Shown: piece after piece, positions 1 through 8,591 of the stretch
Layout: every line of letters begins with the position of its first letter
Position numbering within the stretch: position 1 is the first letter of the stretch
NCBI GenBank assembly: GCA_005223085.1
Contig: NJBP01000049.1
Coordinates: 1 to 14,760 of the forward strand
Length of the DNA: 14,760 nucleotides
Direction of reading: 5' to 3'
Origin: Candidatus Aerophobetes bacterium Ae_b3b
Lineage (GTDB): Bacteria; Aerophobota; Aerophobia; Aerophobales; AE-B3A
Notes under the pieces: generated by a model
Told to the model about the DNA's origin: nothing
What the model saw: only the letters and a program-made list of their open reading frames with translations
Database searches by the model: none
Position numbers and translations under genes: made by a program

Positions 1-559
1 TGGTCTCGATGTTACCCACATTGTCCTGGGCCCTGACCACGTAGTAATAGGTTACTCCATCGGTGGTGGAGGTATCGGTATAGGTGGTGGTTCCGGCAGA
101 GACACTAGCAAGAGAGCTGTTATAGTTCTGACCTCCAGAGCTGGTGGCCCGATAGATGTTATACTGAGCTACATTGGTCTCGGGGGAGGATGCGGTCCAG
201 GTAAGCTTGATGCTGCCGCCGGCAATGGCCGTAGCGGTTAAATTAGTGGGAGCGGGAGGACCGGTACCACCAGATGCGGTAGCTGAGACCTCATTGGTGT
301 TGGTTTCGATGTTGCCAGCAGCATCCTGGGCCCTCACCACATAGTAGTAGGTCTGACCATTGGTAGTGGAGGTATCAGTATAGGTAGTAACTCCCGCAGA
401 AACAGTATAGATGGGAGAAGAATAATCTTGACCTGCCGAAGTGGTGGCCCGGTAGATATTATATTGAGACACATCAGTTTCGGGAGAAGAAGCAGTCCAG
501 GTAAGTTTAATGCTGCCGCCGGCAATGGCGGTGGCGGAGAGACTGGTGGGAGCCGGGGG
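1..559 (-). repeat. Adjacent fibronectin type III repeats (second and third copies)
   Basis: FN3 copy 2 (559-272) and copy 3 (259 to the left edge) follow each other without a calcium-loop module between them. By hand alignment 69 of 86 residues are identical, and long DNA runs match, for example around the AIAGGSIKLTWTASSPET segment (near 209-235 and 509-535). This points to recent duplication of the FN3 unit alone. Copy 3 is cut by the window edge. Confidence 0.8.
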
Positions 560-2359
560 AGCCGTATTGTCTAGAGTCAGGTTAATGCTCTTCGTCGCTG
601 TATTTGACGCTGCATCGGTGGCGGTGACCGGGACGCTGTGGGAACCATCAGCTTTAGTATTGACGAGGCTAATAAGATAGCTAATAACATAGATACCCTG
701 TTCAGCCGGCTCATCGGTTTTCCCATCTCCATTATTGTCCACACTATCGGTTCCCCAATTTACCACTGACTCGCCTCCGGTAACATACTGACTATCAATG
801 TTGGAGAAGTCTGCCGTAAGGGTGCAGCCGGTGTTATGATTAGCCAGGGTCACCGTGAGAGTAATGGTGTCTCCGTCCTTGTAGGAGGATTTGCCTGAGG
901 TAATGCTGCTGAAGGAGGGGCCGGCGGTGATCCCGGCTGTGGCTGAGGCCTGGGTAGTGTTGGTATCAGTATTGCCAGCAACGTCCTGGGCTCTTACCAC
1001 GTAGTAGTAAGTTGTTCCACTGGTGGTGGAGGTATCAGTGTAGGTAGTCGTCCCGGAAGCGACCTGGTAGGTGTAGGCGGAGTAACTCTGACCCCCGGAG
1101 CTGGTAGCTCGGTAGATGTTATAGTTGGCTACGTCGGTTTCGGGAGAAGAGGCAGTCCAGCTAAGCTGGATGCTACCTGCCGCAATAGCTGTGGCTACAA
1201 GATTAGTGGGAGAAGGGGGAGCGGTGTTATCCAGGGTAAGAGAGGTGCTGTTGTCAGTGGTGGAGTTACCCACCCCGTCGGTGGCAGTAACGGGAACCAA
1301 ATAAGAGCCATCGCCTATGTTGTTCACCGTACTAATAGGATAGGTAATCACATAGACACCCTGCTCGGCCGGCTCATCTATGTGTCCATCTCCATTATTA
1401 TCCACTCCGTCAGTTCCCCAGTTGTCGAAATCCTCTGCCCCGGTAACATACTGATCATCAATATTGGAAAAATCAGCCGTAAGAGTACAGGCGGTATTAT
1501 TATTGGCCAGGGTTACCGTGAGAGTGACGGTATCACCATCCTTATAAGCTAATTTATCTTTAGTAATGCTGGTAAAAGAAGGAACGGGCGCGGCTTTTAA
1601 TTCAACGGCAGCAATCGCCCATTTGCGGCCGGGGCTGAAAGTAGTGTTGAACGTGTACGTCCCAGCCGTGGGCACCTCCAGATCACCACCCCAGAGGCTA
1701 TCATCATCGGTGGAGCTGGAGCCGGTGGCGGCATCCCATCGCCCGGTGATGTCGGTACCGGAGACGAAGGAGCCGGCCACGTCGCCGCCCCGGACTGACG
1801 CCGCCCCAAAGATGAGGGAGTCGGCGTTCACGTCGGTGATGGTAGTGGTAGCCTCGTTGTTAGTAGGGGTATCATTGGCGCCGGCGGTTTCCCCGATGGG
1901 ACTACTCTGGTGGACACCGGTGAAGTTCACCGCGGCAATCCCGGAGGGGTTTACGGGAGAGGCAAAATGGACAATGACATTCTTCGCGGTCACCACCGGA
2001 GGGTTGACCAGGTACCAGAGCTCAACCCTTTGGTCCTGGTCGGTGGACCCGCCATGGGCTTTCGCCAGCGAGAGGGACTCGTCAGCATAAGTAACCGAGC
2101 TCACCGACTCATCAGCGCGCATCATCACCGCCACCACCAGGAGGCGGTAGGATCCCGAGAAAACCGTGTGCGAGACGACCGCGTCCGAGCGCCATGAATT
2201 AGAAGTATCAAGATAGTGGCTCTGATAGGCAGGAGGATTAGCCGCTTGAGCAACTGGCAGCGGCGTGAGTCCCACTACCAGAGAGATGGCCACGAGAGAG
2301 ACCAGCAATCCAGATAAGAAAAGAATAGATCTTTTCTTAAGAACCAGGGGATATCTCAT
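1..2359 (-). CDS. Secreted multidomain protein with fibronectin type III and calcium-loop modules (3' end outside window)
   Basis: Reading the minus strand from ATG at 2359 gives 786 uninterrupted codons to the left edge, so the C-terminus is missing. Residues 1-39 form a signal peptide: Lys/Arg-rich start, hydrophobic 11-31, cleavage probably after AQA (37-39). Residues 40-257 form a beta-rich domain with an IAAVNFTGV motif (141-149) and a closing WAIAAVELK (247-255); I do not know a family name. Then two composite units follow: beta modules at 260-378 and 481-598, each with a DNNGDG calcium-type loop (320-325, 541-546), each followed by an FN3 domain (381-475, 601-696). A third FN3 starts at 701. 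The ribosome-binding site AAAAGGA lies 6 nt before ATG, and a strong promoter lies upstream. An extracellular, adhesive or structural role is inferred; no catalytic domain is seen. The unseen C-terminus would hold any sorting or anchoring signal. Confidence 0.88.
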   Translation of the reverse strand, partial: MRYPLVLKKRSILFLSGLLVSLVAISLVVGLTPLPVAQAANPPAYQSHYLDTSNSWRSDAVVSHTVFSGSYRLLVVAVMMRADESVSSVTYADESLSLAKAHGGSTDQDQRVELWYLVNPPVVTAKNVIVHFASPVNPSGIAAVNFTGVHQSSPIGETAGANDTPTNNEATTTITDVNADSLIFGAASVRGGDVAGSFVSGTDITGRWDAATGSSSTDDDSLWGGDLEVPTAGTYTFNTTFSPGRKWAIAAVELKAAPVPSFTSITKDKLAYKDGDTVTLTVTLANNNTACTLTADFSNIDDQYVTGAEDFDNWGTDGVDNNGDGHIDEPAEQGVYVITYPISTVNNIGDGSYLVPVTATDGVGNSTTDNSTSLTLDNTAPPSPTNLVATAIAAGSIQLSWTASSPETDVANYNIYRATSSGGQSYSAYTYQVASGTTTYTDTSTTSGTTYYYVVRAQDVAGNTDTNTTQASATAGITAGPSFSSITSGKSSYKDGDTITLTVTLANHNTGCTLTADFSNIDSQYVTGGESVVNWGTDSVDNNGDGKTDEPAEQGIYVISYLISLVNTKADGSHSVPVTATDAASNTATKSINLTLDNTAPPAPTSLSATAIAGGSIKLTWTASSPETDVSQYNIYRATTSAGQDYSSPIYTVSAGVTTYTDTSTTNGQTYYYVVRAQDAAGNIETNTNEVSATASGGTGPPAPTNLTATAIAGGSIKLTWTASSPETNVAQYNIYRATSSGGQNYNSSLASVSAGTTTYTDTSTTDGVTYYYVVRAQDNVGNIET
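269..1582 (-). repeat. Two tandem copies of a calcium-loop plus FN3 composite module
   Basis: Unit A (1582-926) and unit B (919-269) are in-frame copies of about 218 residues. Both contain YKDGDT, LTVTLAN, CTLTADFSNID, the NWGTD...DNNGDG...DEPAEQG loop, LTLDNTAPP, then an FN3 domain with WTASSPET and YYYVVRAQD. Identity is also visible in the DNA, so these are internal duplications within the secreted-protein gene. Confidence 0.85.
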
Positions 2360-2365
2360 TGGAAT

Positions 2366-2436
2366 TCCTTTTAAACTATCGAGTTTGGGACCCATTTTAT
2401 CATCACTATTCTAGTATGCCCTATACATATTGTCAA
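2366..2436 (-). promoter_or_regulatory. Sigma70-type promoter and ribosome-binding site of the FN3-protein gene
   Basis: On the minus strand a perfect -35 TTGACA (2436-2431) is followed by a 17-nt spacer and a -10 TAGAAT (2413-2408), five of six matches to TATAAT. Transcription should start near 2401, giving a leader of about 42 nt with a ribosome-binding site AAAAGGA (2372-2366). A small 5-bp hairpin, AAACT/AGTTT with a 4-nt loop (2386-2373), lies immediately before the ribosome-binding site and may modulate translation weakly. This is the best promoter seen in the window and sits in the only real gap (102 nt) between the two exported-protein genes. Confidence 0.75.
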
Positions 2437-2461: not shown

Positions 2462-5400
2462 CTAAAATCTTATTTCTACCTCACAGCCCCCTCCCCAGAA
2501 ATAATAATCCTCACCTTCCCTTACCCTATCTTCAAAATACCCTCCTTCCAATCCCAGTTTCATCTGAACGTTCTTTCCCACCTTATATCCTGCTTCACCA
2601 AAGAGAGTCCACTTTTGGGTATTTTTGCTTATCCGGCCAGAGCTAAGATAATTTTTTTCTCTCTCCCGATCCAACCCGGTAGTAAAATGGACTTTATCCT
2701 CAAAGTTTATGATCCGTCGCAGAAAAGGAATCTTTTTCCCCCAGGGACAAAGAGTAAAATAATCCAGCTTTATCCCGTACCAAGAAGAGAGTTTAACTAA
2801 AATTGCTGGCTCCTGATGATATTTTTTTCTATCCTCGCTAGAATTATAACTAACAGTTAGACTAAGATCCTTGAGGTTCTTAAAATCCCCTTTCCAGACG
2901 AGAGAAGGCCGATAGGTTTGGGTAAAAGATATATTCTCTTTGTGGGTGAGTTTCTGGACATAGCCGGTCATGAGAAGGGAATTGGCAAATAGTCTCCCAG
3001 AGAATCTCCCTATACTCCAAGGGCTCTTGTTCAAATCAATCCTAAGATCCAGACTGGGCCAGGTTCTGATGGTGAGAAGATAAGGAGTTCCTTCCCGGAT
3101 CTTTTTCTCCCTCATATTGCTATAATCAGCTCCAAAATTAAGAAAATCAAAAGGTTGCCATCTCTCTCTTAGACTAAAATTTTCTCTCTTTAAGATCAGC
3201 TTTGTCCTCCCGTCTTTTAAATCGAGAGTCTTTAGTCCCAACTGAGAATCAAGACCCAAGGAGCTGGAAGTATCATGGTAAAGAGCTTCTCTGGCTATTT
3301 CATATTCGGTATAGAGCCTTAAAGTACTCAAAAATTGAGAGCGAAGAAAGAATTCTTTCATTCTCAACGGTAAACTTAGGGAGATTTGAGAATGAGTGGA
3401 GATATCCCTTTTTTGGGGACTCTCAAAAGAGAAACCATCTTCTCTATAGCCACCTTGAAACGAAAGGCGAGGGGAAAGATGAAGGAAGGAAGCCTCTGAT
3501 TCTAATCTAAATTCCTTTTCTCTCAACTTGGGCATAAAAGCCCCCTCAGACATCTCATTAACTTTCGTCTGACTATAGGTGGGCTTGATCTTGAAACTCT
3601 CAAAGGTTTCCCAGGGAAGGGTAATTCGCCACTTTCTTGTTTTCTCTTTTTTATTTTCCCCTGCATCCAGAAAAATTTTTCGCTTTTCTCCTATCTCATA
3701 GGCAGTCTGGATAGAAGTAGGTAGAAACACAAAGCGATAAGGATTCTGGTATTCTAAAGAGACCCCATAGGTATCCTGATTCTCGATCTCGGCCAGAGAT
3801 TGATAATCGGTAACCTTATTTTCCACCCTTAGACCCATCCTGGGCCAACGAGGAAGCAGAAAATCTAATCTGTAGTCTCTTTTCTCCTCCACCGCCTTCC
3901 CCAATAGTTTGCTGCTCAGGGGAGTCTCTCGCACCCATAAGGTGTTGGTTTCCTTTCTGGTAAAACCATATGAGAGGGGAAAATACTCCAGAGGTAAAAG
4001 ATTGATTCCCAGGTGAGATTCTCTCATTCGCTGATGGGTAGGGAGTACCCCTACGGTTCGGAATACCGCATCCAATGTCTTATATTCACTACTAATGGAG
4101 AGGAACTTTCCCAGCTCCATCTTTAATCCCACTCGGTTAGCAAAACCCTCTTCCTTTTTTACCCCCGAGAGAAAGATGTCATTAAAGTAAACTCCTTTGT
4201 CGGGATTAGAATTGAAATTACTTCTTGTTCCTATTCTTAGCTGCTTGATCTCCTGCAGGGAGACGCTTCCCTGGGAAGCTAAATCAGTCTTTATCAGCCG
4301 CCAGCCAGTGAAGTCCACCGTGACTTCCTTTTCTAAATATTCTCCTCCATCGCTAACATCTGAGCCTATACGAAGATAGGCAGAATAGGTATTTTCCTGG
4401 CTGCATTCATCAGATCCCCAAATCCAGAAATTAAGAGTTCGGTAACTGCTAAAGTCTTTAGGACTGATGAAGGTTTGTTGAACATAACCCTCATCTCCCT
4501 GGGCCAGGCCATAGAGAAAAAGGGCTCCCTCTTTTTTTCTTTTGTGATCACGGGTTTCAAAATCTCCGTACATCTCATCATAGTAGCTGCGAAAACCCTC
4601 ATCATCAAAGGGATTATAATCTGGATCATCCTGATTATTTTTGGCTTCAACTTTTAGATTCTGTTTCTGCCAGCGATCCCCCGAAATACTTATTCCAGCA
4701 AATTTAAGGCTTGCCTCACCCGAGTTTCCTTGAATCCATAGACGAAGATGCTTAACTATCTCATTCACCTGGTCCCAATTAGAAGCCCTGGCTAAGGGAA
4801 TAGTGACCTTTCTCCAGCCTGCCCAGCTAATTTTTAAATCAGGCTCAATCGTGTCTCCATATTGAGAATAGTTTTCAGTAGTGCTCAGGTTACCATCGCC
4901 GTCAAGATCCTCAGTGTCCAGTTTTCCGTTACCACTTCCCACTAGTTCTCCACCCAGGTCAATACCGGTGTCCTCTCCCGGATTAAGCTTTCCATCCCCA
5001 TTTTTGTCCTCGGTGTCTAACTCACCATCCCCATCAGCATCCTCACTCACTACCCCCAGATCAAACCATAGTCTCTGTCCCTGACCATCCCCTTTGATCC
5101 ACAGCTCAAGATAGTACCTCTGAGTATAATCCCTTCCTACTTTCGAGATAGGATAAACTAAACTCTCCCAACTCTCGGGCATGGAAAAATCAAAATTGAG
5201 AACCAGAACCTCTATTTGGTCCCGACTCCAGTCAGGATTAATATCCTCACCGGGAATATCTTCACTCCGGATATCAACCCCGCCCCTTTCTCCCAAACTC
5301 GCCAGATCCGGCCTACTTCCGAGCCGCCAGGCATCCTTATCCATAGATAAATCATCGCTAATTTTGGTAGATTCAAAGCTCTCTATAATGGCTTTGCCAA

Positions 5401-7117
5401 AGGTGTTGGGGTCATACAGGCTTCTGGCCACCTCTCCTGAAACCTTTAGATTAAGTGCATGAGCAGGATCGTCTTCTACAGATGAGCCGGGCCCCAAATT
5501 AAACTGGGTGTCCAGTCCCATTGCCTGATGAGAGACCGGAGAAGATCCCACCTGCGGTGGTTGGTTGACGCGGGGAGAACCCTGGGAAAGAAAGGTTGAC
5601 CCTAAAGAAACTCTCTCGTGAGGAACCCAGGCTCCTCGAACTCCAAGAATAGTCGCCTTTCCCCCCATAAAGGGTATCCATTCATAATCTACCTTGATCT
5701 TGGTATCTTCGGTTATGTGAGCTGGATCAAAAAAGGACAAAAAGCCCGAACTATAATCGATTAAATAATCTACCTCTTTGGTTAGCCTCTTTCCATCCAT
5801 CCATACAATTTCACTTCCGGGAATGATGTCAGGATGAAGAAGGTAGACATCAATGGCATGTTTATATTCGGTGTAAATGGTGTACTCATGAGTGGGATGA
5901 GGAGGGTAGGCGTTGGGGAATGGCGGCAGAGGATGAGTAAATTTTAAAACCCCGAAGTCATAATCTATCTCAAATTCATAATTTGAGGTTACGTCACGGC
6001 CGATCAAATCAAAGATGAGAAGAGTAAAATCCTCCCGACGAATTTTCTGGGAGCCGAGATAATAATAGTTTCTTAGCTCGTACTCTTCTATATAGACAGG
6101 AGCCTGCTGTTTCTTTATCATGCGGTATCCTGAGGCTGGATATCGGATACCATCTTTATCCTGGTAGCTAATGGCAATGACAAAATTTTCCTCTATGCTT
6201 CGGCGAAATTTTACTGTTCCCTCCCTTGAGTCCCACAAATAATCTTCTCCCGGGTATTGTAGATCAAAATAGCCAGTATAAGAGTCACTTCCTTCCCCGG
6301 TTACCGTTAGCTTGACCGCGGTTTCATTGTTAGTGCCATCCTGATCATCTAAGTAAACTTCCAAGCTTTGGGAAGTAAGAGGAAGATGGGCAGGATCAAA
6401 GTAAGTCAGGTAATACCTTCTCTTCAAATAAGAGGTATCAGGGATTTCCTTTTTCTCAAAAGTAGTCTTTCCGGTGAAGGTTTTACTCTCTGAGACCCCT
6501 TTGCTCACGCTGCCTATTCCCATAAGGTTAAACCCGCCTTTTTTAGCGGTCACCTTAGCCCCAAAGAGGCTCTTATTATAGGCAAGGAATTCGGTATCAG
6601 GCCAGCCCAATTGAAGATCCCCTAAGGCAACTTCCTGGATGATTTCATTCTCTTTCCCCTGGTAGGTAAGGGATATTTTTTGCTGCTCACTCCGGGGAGC
6701 AGTATCATCATAATCCACATTAGCAAAAATCCTCTCCCCTACCCTTCCCCGCACCTTAACCTGAAGCTTTTGCTGAATTTCGGTTTCTGTGGTAGGCTTC
6801 TTTGGTTCAGTCTGGGCCTCACCTCTTTTAAGATAATGGCGCTGCCGGTATTTTATACCAATTACTTTGCGACCAAAGATCCTCAGGTGAGGTTCCCAGG
6901 AAAGTTGGGTGCTGATGATTCCTTTTTTTTCGCTATTTCCTTCTAACGAGACATCCGCGGCTTCTTCTTTCCACAAAACCCCACCCAACCAGGCCGAATA
7001 GAGTTTTTCCTGGGCTATTTCCCAGAGACTTATCTTTTCGCCTGCTTTTATGGGTCCGGGAAGACAGAAGATCAAAAGGAAAAATAAAAAAAATGGAGCT
7101 GCCCTGCTTATCCGCAA
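2462..7117 (-). CDS. SprA/Sov-like large outer-membrane protein
   Basis: This 1551-residue protein resembles the SprA family, the outer-membrane translocon of the type IX secretion system. A signal peptide (residues 1-25, APFFLFFLLIFCLPG core, cleavage near KA-GE) opens it. Residues 115-245 match the SprA N-terminal pattern: KVRGRVGERIFANVDY, then ENEIIQEVALGDLQL, then NKSLFGAKV and a following YFDPAH. Residues 435-480 hold a VWMDGKRL...DYLIDY segment. Around 577-600 is FESTKISDDL...AWRLGS, and at 684-692 WFDLGVVSED, both SprA-like. EF-hand-like loops lie at 693-749. Two jelly-roll-like stretches (610-815, 850-985) precede a C-terminal half rich in alternating strands ending in Phe, typical of outer-membrane barrels. 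Known SprA proteins are longer (about 2400 residues). The start is TTG with GAGG 9 nt upstream; it is chosen because the signal peptide begins exactly there. No other type IX gene is present, so function is inferred from family resemblance. Confidence 0.72.
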   Translation of the reverse strand: MRISRAAPFFLFFLLIFCLPGPIKAGEKISLWEIAQEKLYSAWLGGVLWKEEAADVSLEGNSEKKGIISTQLSWEPHLRIFGRKVIGIKYRQRHYLKRGEAQTEPKKPTTETEIQQKLQVKVRGRVGERIFANVDYDDTAPRSEQQKISLTYQGKENEIIQEVALGDLQLGWPDTEFLAYNKSLFGAKVTAKKGGFNLMGIGSVSKGVSESKTFTGKTTFEKKEIPDTSYLKRRYYLTYFDPAHLPLTSQSLEVYLDDQDGTNNETAVKLTVTGEGSDSYTGYFDLQYPGEDYLWDSREGTVKFRRSIEENFVIAISYQDKDGIRYPASGYRMIKKQQAPVYIEEYELRNYYYLGSQKIRREDFTLLIFDLIGRDVTSNYEFEIDYDFGVLKFTHPLPPFPNAYPPHPTHEYTIYTEYKHAIDVYLLHPDIIPGSEIVWMDGKRLTKEVDYLIDYSSGFLSFFDPAHITEDTKIKVDYEWIPFMGGKATILGVRGAWVPHERVSLGSTFLSQGSPRVNQPPQVGSSPVSHQAMGLDTQFNLGPGSSVEDDPAHALNLKVSGEVARSLYDPNTFGKAIIESFESTKISDDLSMDKDAWRLGSRPDLASLGERGGVDIRSEDIPGEDINPDWSRDQIEVLVLNFDFSMPESWESLVYPISKVGRDYTQRYYLELWIKGDGQGQRLWFDLGVVSEDADGDGELDTEDKNGDGKLNPGEDTGIDLGGELVGSGNGKLDTEDLDGDGNLSTTENYSQYGDTIEPDLKISWAGWRKVTIPLARASNWDQVNEIVKHLRLWIQGNSGEASLKFAGISISGDRWQKQNLKVEAKNNQDDPDYNPFDDEGFRSYYDEMYGDFETRDHKRKKEGALFLYGLAQGDEGYVQQTFISPKDFSSYRTLNFWIWGSDECSQENTYSAYLRIGSDVSDGGEYLEKEVTVDFTGWRLIKTDLASQGSVSLQEIKQLRIGTRSNFNSNPDKGVYFNDIFLSGVKKEEGFANRVGLKMELGKFLSISSEYKTLDAVFRTVGVLPTHQRMRESHLGINLLPLEYFPLSYGFTRKETNTLWVRETPLSSKLLGKAVEEKRDYRLDFLLPRWPRMGLRVENKVTDYQSLAEIENQDTYGVSLEYQNPYRFVFLPTSIQTAYEIGEKRKIFLDAGENKKEKTRKWRITLPWETFESFKIKPTYSQTKVNEMSEGAFMPKLREKEFRLESEASFLHLSPRLSFQGGYREDGFSFESPQKRDISTHSQISLSLPLRMKEFFLRSQFLSTLRLYTEYEIAREALYHDTSSSLGLDSQLGLKTLDLKDGRTKLILKRENFSLRERWQPFDFLNFGADYSNMREKKIREGTPYLLTIRTWPSLDLRIDLNKSPWSIGRFSGRLFANSLLMTGYVQKLTHKENISFTQTYRPSLVWKGDFKNLKDLSLTVSYNSSEDRKKYHQEPAILVKLSSWYGIKLDYFTLCPWGKKIPFLRRIINFEDKVHFTTGLDREREKNYLSSGRISKNTQKWTLFGEAGYKVGKNVQMKLGLEGGYFEDRVREGEDYYFWGGGCEVEIRF
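4871..5041 (-). repeat. EF-hand-like calcium loop cluster inside the SprA-like gene
   Basis: Residues 693-749 of the SprA-like protein contain four loops in succession: DADGDGELDTED, KNGDGKLNPGED, GNGKLDTED and LDGDGNLSTTEN. The Asp/Asn spacing is that of dockerin or thrombospondin type 3 calcium loops. They interrupt the first jelly-roll-like module, directly after the WFDLGVVSED segment. Confidence 0.7.
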
Positions 7118-7126
7118 TTTACCCGT

Positions 7127-7164
7127 CCTCTGTTTATGATATAGAAAACGGGAAAACTAGGCAA
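7127..7164 (-). promoter_or_regulatory. Possible promoter and ribosome-binding site of the SprA-like gene
   Basis: On the minus strand TTGCCT (7164-7159) is followed by a 17-nt spacer and TATCAT (7141-7136), which matches TATAAT in five of six positions. The -10 box overlaps the hisD stop codon. Transcription would start near 7129, leaving a leader of only about 12 nt with the GAGG ribosome-binding site (7130-7127) at its very start. The -35 box is weak, so this is a suggestion only; the gene could equally be read through from hisD, whose stop is 16 nt before the TTG start. Confidence 0.35.
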
Positions 7165-8591
7165 GAAATATCCCGGGAAAGTCCCTCGATAGGCGTATAA
7201 ACCTGCCAACTATTAATACTTCTTGGCACTATCAAGAGAAAGGTGGCGAGGGAAATTGGAATGGTGGGAAACTTAATATCTTGCCTTACCTCGATGGAGC
7301 GTGCATGGGCATCATAGGGCCCTTCAGCAAAAGCAAGAGTAGCTATATCTTTAGCCATCAGTTTTAGGGCCCCTTTGGTAAGGGATTGATAGGTTAGTAA
7401 TTTAAGGAAGGTCTGAACCGAAAGGCCAGAAAAACTTTTGGCCCAGCCTCCTGTGGGAAGAATATGATTGGTTCCGCTTAGATAATCAGCCGCAGCTACC
7501 GGTGAGAAATCGCCCAGAAAGACGGAGCCGGCATTCTTTATCTGCTTAAGAACCCCCTCGGGTCCTCGGGTCATTATCTCTAGATGCTCGGGAGCAAAAT
7601 CATTTACAAAATTGACGGCTTCATCCAGGTTCTCCACCATTAAAATGGCTCCGTATTTTTCCAGAGATTTTTCCATTATTTTTCTGCGGGAAAATCTTTT
7701 TATCTCCTTAGTTAGAAGCTCACAAACTTCTTCAGCCAATTTTTCCGAAGTGGTTACCAGGATAGAGCAGCTCTCCTCATCGTGCTCTGCTTGAGATAGT
7801 AGGTCATTCGCTACATAGGCCGAATTTGCCGAATCATCGGCCAGGACCAAAATCTCACTAGGCCCGGCCGGACAGTCTATCCCCACTTTCCCTAAACTAG
7901 AAAGATAGGTCTTTGCTGCATTAACATAGACATTTCCCGGACCTACCACCAGGTCAACTTTAGGAATGGTACCTGTGCCCAAGGTTAGAGCAGCTATTGC
8001 CTGTACTCCACCCACGTTAATCATAAGATCTACCCCGGCTATATCAGCCGCTACCATAACTACCTCGGCCATTTCACCCTCCTTGGAAGGAGGACTGGCA
8101 AGGATGATCTTACCTACCCCGGCCAATTTTGCTGGAACTGTAGCCATTATTGCGGTGGAGGGATATCTGGCTTTTCCCCCTGGGACGTAAACACCTACCT
8201 GATCAAAGGGAACAAATCTTTGCCCCAGGGTGTAACTACCCTCACCTTTATTTAAGAAGGTTTTACTAATTGACCAGTCCTTAGGCAACTGGTGTCGATG
8301 AAAATCATAAACCTGGTCTCGCATTTTCCTTAGTGATTCTATAACTTCTGAACTAACCCTTTTATAAGCCGCTTTTACCCTCTCTTTTTTAACCAAAAAA
8401 TCCCGTGAGCTAAGGCTAACCCCATCAAATTTACTGGTAAACCTCGAGACTGCTTCATCGCCGCGTTTTTCAACTTCCTGAATAATGGGGATAACACGAG
8501 AGAGAATCTCCTCCATCCTTGAGCGAGATCTTTCTAAGATCCTCTTATAATCACCCCTACTTAAATCTTTTAACTTCTTGGGCATCAACAT
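7134..8591 (-). CDS. hisD: Histidinol dehydrogenase with C-terminal extension
   Basis: HisD catalyses the last two oxidations of histidine biosynthesis, L-histidinol to L-histidine with two NAD+, using a zinc site. The 485-residue protein shows the family motifs in order: VGVYVPGGKARYPST (132-146), VVGPGNVYVNAAK (215-227), GIDCPAGPSEILVLADD (237-253), QAEHDEES (267-274), FAPEHLE (332-338), DYLSGTNHILPTGG (369-382) and HARSIEVR (429-436). Expected zinc ligands are Q267, H270, D369 and H429; the catalytic pair is E335-H336. The family normally ends soon after the last motif (about 430 residues in E. coli); here about 49 further, partly hydrophobic residues follow, which is odd. AAAAGG 7 nt upstream supports ATG 8591, overlapping the mtaB stop; ATG 8585 (TGATG overlap) is the alternative. 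No other his gene is present, so a HisD-family dehydrogenase for another alcohol cannot be excluded. Confidence 0.92.
   Translation of the reverse strand: MLMPKKLKDLSRGDYKRILERSRSRMEEILSRVIPIIQEVEKRGDEAVSRFTSKFDGVSLSSRDFLVKKERVKAAYKRVSSEVIESLRKMRDQVYDFHRHQLPKDWSISKTFLNKGEGSYTLGQRFVPFDQVGVYVPGGKARYPSTAIMATVPAKLAGVGKIILASPPSKEGEMAEVVMVAADIAGVDLMINVGGVQAIAALTLGTGTIPKVDLVVGPGNVYVNAAKTYLSSLGKVGIDCPAGPSEILVLADDSANSAYVANDLLSQAEHDEESCSILVTTSEKLAEEVCELLTKEIKRFSRRKIMEKSLEKYGAILMVENLDEAVNFVNDFAPEHLEIMTRGPEGVLKQIKNAGSVFLGDFSPVAAADYLSGTNHILPTGGWAKSFSGLSVQTFLKLLTYQSLTKGALKLMAKDIATLAFAEGPYDAHARSIEVRQDIKFPTIPISLATFLLIVPRSINSWQVYTPIEGLSRDISCLVFPFSIS

What the first reader, a model, noticed from the sequence alone, without database searches (positions are those of the whole stretch)
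2462..7117. Compact SprA-like translocon candidate with no visible type IX partners
The N-terminal pattern (GDLQL ... NKSLFGAKV ... YFDPAH) and the WFDLGVVSED segment match what I know of SprA, the large barrel that moves cargo across the outer membrane in type IX secretion. Here it is only 1551 residues, against about 2400 in Bacteroidota, and sits among housekeeping genes. It may be a minimal or divergent relative, or a SprA-derived outer-membrane protein with another job.
Basis: partly seen in the sequence, partly recalled or inferred. Interest (0 to 1): 0.6.

Follow-up and report, generated by a model that had tools for sequence, protein, structure and literature searches.

The report
Compact SprA translocon outside FCB bacteria
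This gene encodes a shortened but complete-looking version of SprA, the giant outer-membrane pore of type IX secretion, in an uncultured bacterium (Aerophobota) from outside the group thought to own that system, and its relatives carry the matching carrier protein and tagged cargo but none of the usual motor or sortase parts that could be searched for.

Summary
Confirmed and extended. The 1551-aa ORF is a SprA/Sov homologue. TIGR04189 matches at E 5e-55 (186 bits, cut-off 200; an orthologue scores 210). AlphaFold2 models of two overlapping parts find only SprA as strong structural matches (Foldseek E 1e-36 to 4e-52) and together run from SprA residue ~130 to its C-terminus. The genome is Aerophobota, outside the FCB superphylum. 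Orthologues occur in 11 of 17 Aerophobota genomes, relatives in Elusimicrobiota; the tree separates this lineage from FCB SprAs (100/100).

Aerophobota encode PorV carriers, mostly directly downstream of genes whose products end in a type IX C-terminal sorting domain (CTD). The window's own genome has a PorV fragment and a CTD protein. GldL, GldM, GldN and C25 (PorU-type) sortases were not detected, though divergent forms could be missed. SprA's N-terminal segment, the SkpA/SprE dock in Flavobacterium, is short and unconserved.

Most likely a stripped type IX translocon: CTD cargo enters the barrel, binds a dedicated PorV and leaves sideways. What powers carrier release is unknown. Caveat: four genomes with CTD cargo and PorV show no SprA orthologue. 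Verdict: new variant of a known kind.

The parts
2462..7117 (-). compact sprA/sov-like gene, 1551 aa, TTG start
   Evidence: TIGR04189 E 5e-55; Foldseek top four hits all SprA for both part-models
7043..7117 (-). predicted Sec signal peptide, residues ~1-25 (read from sequence)
   Evidence: MRISRAAPFFLFFLLIFCLPGPIKAGE; basic start, hydrophobic core; cleavage site not computed
6893..7042 (-). residues 26-75: short, unconserved N-terminal segment at the place of SprA's SkpA/SprE-docking N-terminus
   Evidence: conservation 0.35 over residues 1-75 against 0.51-0.78 elsewhere; pLDDT under 50; structural alignment to SprA starts at model residues 45-50 = SprA 130-135
2465..6892 (-). residues 76-1551: SprA barrel and cap region
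   Evidence: part-models align to SprA 130-1761 and, from residue 754, to its C-terminus at 2401
4676..5368 (-). residues ~584-814: CBM/CIA30-like jelly-roll with calcium-loop insert
   Evidence: Z 12.2-14.1, rmsd 2.7-4.3 to CBM11/27/30 and CIA30 folds; PF03425 weak
4883..5041 (-). residues 693-745: repeated DxDxDG calcium-loop-like motifs, the most conserved stretch
   Evidence: many invariant columns in A1; conserved in form across phyla
2471..4195 (-). residues ~975-1549: 26 consecutive candidate membrane strands
   Evidence: DSSP of model m02ff4fb8c24f, mostly pLDDT 80-95; my count
2..2395 (-). fn3/Ig-repeat surface protein with signal-peptide-like start, cut by contig end; possible cargo (C-terminus unseen)
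   Evidence: fn3 4e-17, Big_13 1e-14; homologue also downstream of sprA in G007/L020
7134..8591 (-). hisD, upstream neighbour of sprA in several Aerophobota
   Evidence: same order in L017 and L026; L018 with a porV gene between

Best explanation
The gene encodes the outer-membrane translocon of a stripped-down type IX secretion system. The product is exported by Sec and inserted in the outer membrane as a very large SprA-fold barrel. Cargo proteins with a C-terminal sorting domain (CTD) enter the pore from the periplasm, the CTD binds a PorV-family carrier docked at the barrel's side, and the carrier-cargo pair leaves sideways into the outer leaflet, so the cargo ends on the cell surface. Each cargo tends to have its own PorV encoded just downstream. 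SHOWN: SprA homology and fold, PorV homologues, CTD homology, cargo-porV gene pairing, and non-detection of GldL/M/N and C25 sortases. INFERRED: that these parts work together in secretion, the sideways-exit mechanism (by analogy with Flavobacterium), and that release is driven by something other than a recognisable GldLM motor (a divergent motor, another energised inner-membrane system, or cargo folding).
For: SprA homology and fold. Orthologues in 11 of 17 genomes and 9 of 12 genera. PorV_fam NF033709 in 16 of 17 Aerophobota genomes; the profile of their PorVs hits a single PDB sequence, the PorV of the SprA-PorV complexes (E 2.8e-19). The CTD profile hits the CTDs of PorU (5e-10), PorZ (2e-9) and a CTD solved in a SprA complex entry, 8glj (1e-3). 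The CTD gene is the nearest upstream same-strand ORF of porV at 19 of 27 Aerophobota porV genes (my tally), often within 75 bp. In L022 sprA, a CTD gene and porV share one 11.9-kb contig and strand; in five Elusimicrobia contigs a CTD protein, PorV, LptFG and SprA lie within about 10 kb. Window's own genome: CTD protein at C33 (E 4.5e-28) and PorV C-terminal half at the C6 contig edge (E 2e-28).
Against: G001, G008, G012 and G014 have CTD and PorV genes but no SprA orthologue was found even with a profile; G006 has a PorV but neither CTD nor SprA, and G013 only weak PorV matches. Incompleteness (82-92%) may explain some, but six of 17 missing is more than expected. GldL, GldM, GldN and C25 were not found. 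The only strong PorV in the window's own genome is a contig-edge fragment. No experiment exists.
Confidence: 0.7

Rival explanations
1. A SprA-derived outer-membrane protein with another job, such as an envelope-biogenesis or nutrient pore; the PorV/CTD pairs use another route.
For: Four genomes have CTD-porV pairs without a detectable SprA orthologue; sprA is not in an operon with porV in the window; LptFG lie next to sprA in Elusimicrobia and Ignavibacteria; motor and sortase not found.
Against: Structural alignment runs through the whole of SprA's barrel and cap; the PorVs are closest in the PDB to the SprA-docking PorV; sprA, CTD cargo and/or porV are physically linked in L018, L021, L022 and five Elusimicrobia contigs.
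Confidence: 0.17
2. A fully canonical type IX system whose GldKLMN, SprE and PorU relatives are too divergent for the profiles used.
For: The same GldL/M/N profiles also find nothing convincing in FCB genomes of Cloacimonadota, WOR-3, Ignavibacteria and one Bacteroidota MAG that have SprA, so they may be tuned to Bacteroidia-type sequences.
Against: C25 peptidases are found in all six FCB-type SprA genomes but in none of the 17 Aerophobota or seven other non-FCB genomes; the SkpA/SprE-docking N-terminus is shortened and unconserved.
Confidence: 0.1
3. Contamination or chance: the contig does not belong to the genome, or the resemblance is generic barrel similarity.
For: MAG data; TIGR04189 score just below its cut-off.
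Against: Same gene order with an 86%-identical SprA in the same-genus genome (L017); monophyletic Aerophobota clade (100/100); SprA hits exceed all other folds by about 30 orders of magnitude in Foldseek.
Confidence: 0.01

Closest known systems
SprA (Flavobacterium johnsoniae) / Sov (Porphyromonas gingivalis), TIGR04189, PDB 6h3i and 8gl8
   Same: Homologous, co-linear barrel and cap from SprA residue ~130 to the C-terminus; retained calcium-loop region; compatible with a ~36-strand barrel
   Different: 1551 instead of 2403 aa; short, unconserved N-terminus where SkpA and SprE dock; about 11-18% identity in structural alignments; non-FCB phylum
PorV/PorQ-type carrier (NF033709, PF19572)
   Same: Carriers over the NF033709 cut-off in most Aerophobota; profile hits only the SprA-bound PorV in the PDB
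   Different: Several per genome, usually each directly downstream of one CTD cargo gene
Type A CTD (TIGR04183, PF18962)
   Same: YPNP start, WD, GxY, terminal GKI motif; profile hits PorU, PorZ and 8glj CTDs
   Different: Mostly below Pfam cut-offs; also related to the FlgD Ig domain
Elusimicrobiota SprA (L027, L028, L036, L039, rumen Endomicrobia)
   Same: Related non-FCB lineage, 1733-1868 aa, with PorV and CTD M6-peptidase genes nearby in the non-rumen members
   Different: 12-34 PorV-family genes per genome; LptFG beside sprA

Membership tests
SprA/Sov translocon | Full-length match to TIGR04189 above cut-off | tested here: inconclusive
   186.4 bits against 200 for the window; orthologue L006 210 bits; all ten members of A1 match
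SprA/Sov translocon | SprA fold with giant C-terminal barrel | tested here: met
   Foldseek E 1e-36 to 4e-52 to SprA, next folds 1e-6; 925-987 residues of the C-terminal model aligned over SprA 754-2401. Barrel closure and exact strand number not shown
SprA/Sov translocon | Conserved N-terminal SkpA/SprE-docking segment (accessory feature) | tested here: not met
   only ~50 residues before SprA position ~130, conservation 0.35, pLDDT under 50; substrate binds translocon lacking SkpA/SprE (PMC10994853), so not essential to being SprA
Type IX secretion system | PorV-type carrier | tested here: met
   in the window's genome a contig-edge fragment at 99.9 bits, cut-off 90
Type IX secretion system | CTD-bearing cargo | tested here: met
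   own-genome protein scores 25.2 bits on TIGR04183 (cut-off 23)
Type IX secretion system | GldL/GldM (PorL/M) proton motor | tested here: inconclusive
   none in 13 Aerophobota genomes; GldL control positive in 14 of 61 Bacteroidota genomes but negative in other FCB SprA genomes, so divergent motors could be missed; GldM had no positive control
Type IX secretion system | GldK/GldN (PorK/N) ring or track | tested here: inconclusive
   GldN none in 17 genomes, controls positive in three; GldK not tested
Type IX secretion system | C25-family sortase PorU (type A attachment) | tested here: not met
   PF01364 none in 17 Aerophobota or seven other non-FCB genomes; present in all six FCB-type SprA genomes and controls
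Type IX secretion system | SprE/PorW, PorD, Plug, PPI, PorG | not tested
Type IX secretion system | Secretion of CTD proteins depends on SprA | not testable with these tools
   needs experiment

The most novel reading that the evidence does not exclude
Aerophobota and Elusimicrobiota carry a non-FCB branch of type IX secretion made of SprA, dedicated PorV carriers and CTD cargo, without GldLM motor, GldKN ring or PorU sortase: a minimal system, possibly close to the state before the motor was added, in which another force releases the carrier.
Probability: 0.35. Interest if true: 0.82.

Novelty: new variant of a known kind. Interest (0 to 1): 0.62.

Why it matters
Reviews place type IX secretion only in FCB phyla, and one states that its genes are absent elsewhere (PMC11285876; also PMC11205867, PMC12421860). 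A SprA-PorV-CTD set in two non-FCB phyla, with its own deep branch, would move the origin of the translocon back and suggest that it can exist apart from the gliding/rotary motor. It makes the open question of how carrier-cargo release is energised testable by comparison, and gives a smaller SprA for structural work.

Tried and rejected
PF14349 (SprA_N) searched in the window's genome: no match and no control rang, so uninformative. Planctomycete hits L048 and L049 match only the DxDxDG-rich stretch and are taken as chance or convergence. The 850-aa protein of G014 (P0002/L012) shares only a short SprA-like segment ahead of a porin-like barrel and is not counted as SprA. SprA absences in six genomes were not rescued by a wider profile. 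Generic barrel and jelly-roll matches of similar Z (Mtr complex, porins, ushers, CBMs) rank beside SprA for the C-terminal part-model in VIA-align, so the family assignment rests on Foldseek E-values, sequence profiles and the N-terminal part-model. Literature searches for type IX or SprA in Elusimicrobia or Aerophobetes found no report; open-access papers only. CTDs without known Por genes were noted in Poribacteria (PMC3909097).

Full report
WHAT WAS CHECKED. The ORF at 2462-7117(-) is real: 1551 codons, TTG start, hisD ending 16 bp upstream. It matches NCBIfam TIGR04189 (Sov/SprA) at E 5.2e-55, 186.4 bits, slightly below the curated cut-off of 200. PF14349 alone is weak. phmmer finds F. johnsoniae SprA in the PDB (5e-10), and a profile of ten orthologues gives 3.8e-28.

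WHERE IT IS. The window is one whole contig of a 2.04-Mb MAG, 88.6% complete. So the contig is not a binning accident, and the phylum is Aerophobota.

FAMILY. Orthologues were found in 11 of 17 Aerophobota genomes and 9 of 12 genera (some are contig-edge pieces; G004 has two copies); full-length ones are 1514-1642 aa and 44-56% identical to the window protein. All ten members of alignment A1 match TIGR04189 and at least one passes the cut-off (210 bits). A scan of named genomes found relatives in Elusimicrobiota (best segments 23-35% identical, full proteins 1733-1868 aa), Fermentibacterota (Hyd24-12), Cloacimonadota (~2050 aa), WOR-3 (1863 aa), Ignavibacteria and Bacteroidota (2300-2330 aa). 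The proteins align end to end with a size gradient. A maximum-likelihood tree splits them into an FCB-type group and a group of Elusimicrobiota, Aerophobota and one unclassified bacterium (100/100), with Aerophobota a clade (100/100). The tree is unrooted.

STRUCTURE. Two overlapping parts were modelled (residues 27-1160 and 380-1551; mean pLDDT 78 each; pTM 0.57 and 0.51). Foldseek's four best PDB hits are the SprA structures for both parts (E 4.5e-36 to 3.6e-48, and 1.5e-38 to 3.6e-52); the next folds are at 1e-6 to 1e-7. VIA-align places the first part on SprA from residue 130-135 to about 1760 (Z 18.8-22.6, at the top of the list) and the second on 754-2401 (925-987 residues aligned, Z 15.0-16.2, tied there with unrelated barrels). 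rmsd is high (7.5-18 A), as expected for cut barrels. I count 26 consecutive strands at residues 975-1549 plus about a dozen earlier candidates, compatible with SprA's 36 strands (number from PMC10994853), but closure was not shown. A CBM-like jelly-roll (about 584-814) carries DxDxDG calcium-loop-like repeats that are the most conserved stretch. The region before SprA position ~130 is short, poorly conserved (0.35) and unstructured. In Flavobacterium that N-terminus binds SkpA and SprE and is needed for transport (PMC10994853).

PARTNERS. PorV_fam (NF033709) is found in 16 of 17 Aerophobota genomes. The PorV profile A6 hits one PDB sequence only, the PorV of the SprA complexes (2.8e-19). Por_Secre_tail (PF18962) rings in 11 of 17 genomes; a CTD profile built from the loci (A2) rings in 13 and matches the CTDs of PorU, PorZ and 8glj, but also, more weakly, FlgD. 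Cargo bodies include subtilases, a papain-like protease and invasin/Big_1-domain proteins. At 19 of 27 Aerophobota porV genes with readable upstream DNA (my tally; loci partly chosen by CTD hits) the nearest upstream same-strand ORF ends in this CTD, usually within 75 bp. In L022 (G015) SprA, a CTD protein and PorV lie on one contig and strand; L021 has a CTD gene directly upstream of sprA; L018 has a divergent porV. In Elusimicrobia L027, L028, L029, L036 and L039 a CTD M6-peptidase-type protein, PorV, LptFG and SprA are neighbours. The window's own genome has a CTD protein at C33 (A2 E 4.5e-28; TIGR04183 25.2 bits, cut-off 23) with a signal-peptide-like start, and the C-terminal half of a PorV at the edge of C6 (99.9 bits, cut-off 90).

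WHAT WAS NOT FOUND. GldM and GldL in 13 Aerophobota and 13 other SprA genomes; GldN in all 17 plus 13 (one sub-threshold 18.9-bit hit in G029). Controls: GldL in 14 of 61 Bacteroidota, GldN in three of three. But these profiles also miss FCB genomes with SprA, so divergent motors cannot be excluded. C25 peptidases are in all six FCB-type SprA genomes and the controls, and in none of the non-FCB ones. SprE, Plug, PorG and GldK were not tested.

INTERPRETATION. The simplest reading is a stripped type IX translocon: CTD cargo, cognate PorV carrier, SprA pore with lateral exit. The steps are inferred from Flavobacterium, where CTD binding to the translocon needs no energy and carrier release does (PMC10994853, PMC12635249). 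What drives release here is unknown. The main worry is that four genomes with CTD-PorV genes lack a detectable SprA; they are fragmented MAGs, but this leaves room for an independent role of either part.

NOVELTY. Published accounts confine type IX genes to FCB phyla (PMC11285876, PMC11205867, PMC12421860). I found no report for Aerophobota or Elusimicrobiota in the open-access library; reports in closed journals or preprints cannot be excluded, and automatic annotation may already name such proteins SprA.

Noticed in passing
window 7134-8591: hisD runs 485 aa here against about 437-447 in relatives (L017 ends ...EVRQE); the stop is lost or shifted so that the gene reads about 45 residues further, almost to sprA.
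   Followed up: partly
window 2-2395: The fn3/Ig-repeat gene has GC 0.54 against 0.44-0.45 for the rest of the contig, and a homologue lies downstream of sprA in G007 too.
   Followed up: partly
L012 766-3252 (G014:C73): 850-aa frame with a short SprA-like segment ahead of a porin/SlpA-like barrel, about 3 kb from a CTD gene; a second such segment at G014:C105. May be a SprA-domain chimera.
   Followed up: no
G017-G023 (genomes of L027, L028, L029, L036, L039, L031, L030): Elusimicrobia and the unclassified bacterium hold 12-34 PorV-family genes per genome, far more than the Aerophobota.
   Followed up: no
L018 and L025 (G004): One genome labelled 'Clostridia bacterium' in its record carries two compact SprA paralogues and groups firmly with Aerophobota: probably a mislabelled record.
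   Followed up: partly
G009:C69 (L055): CTD fragments with stops lie on either side of a porV gene: possibly a decayed cargo gene beside an intact carrier.
   Followed up: no
L027 5518-6930; L029 5459-6901: Elusimicrobia PorV proteins of 470-480 aa; in L027 the C-terminal part is a CsgG/LpoB-like periplasmic domain, an unusual carrier fusion.
   Followed up: no
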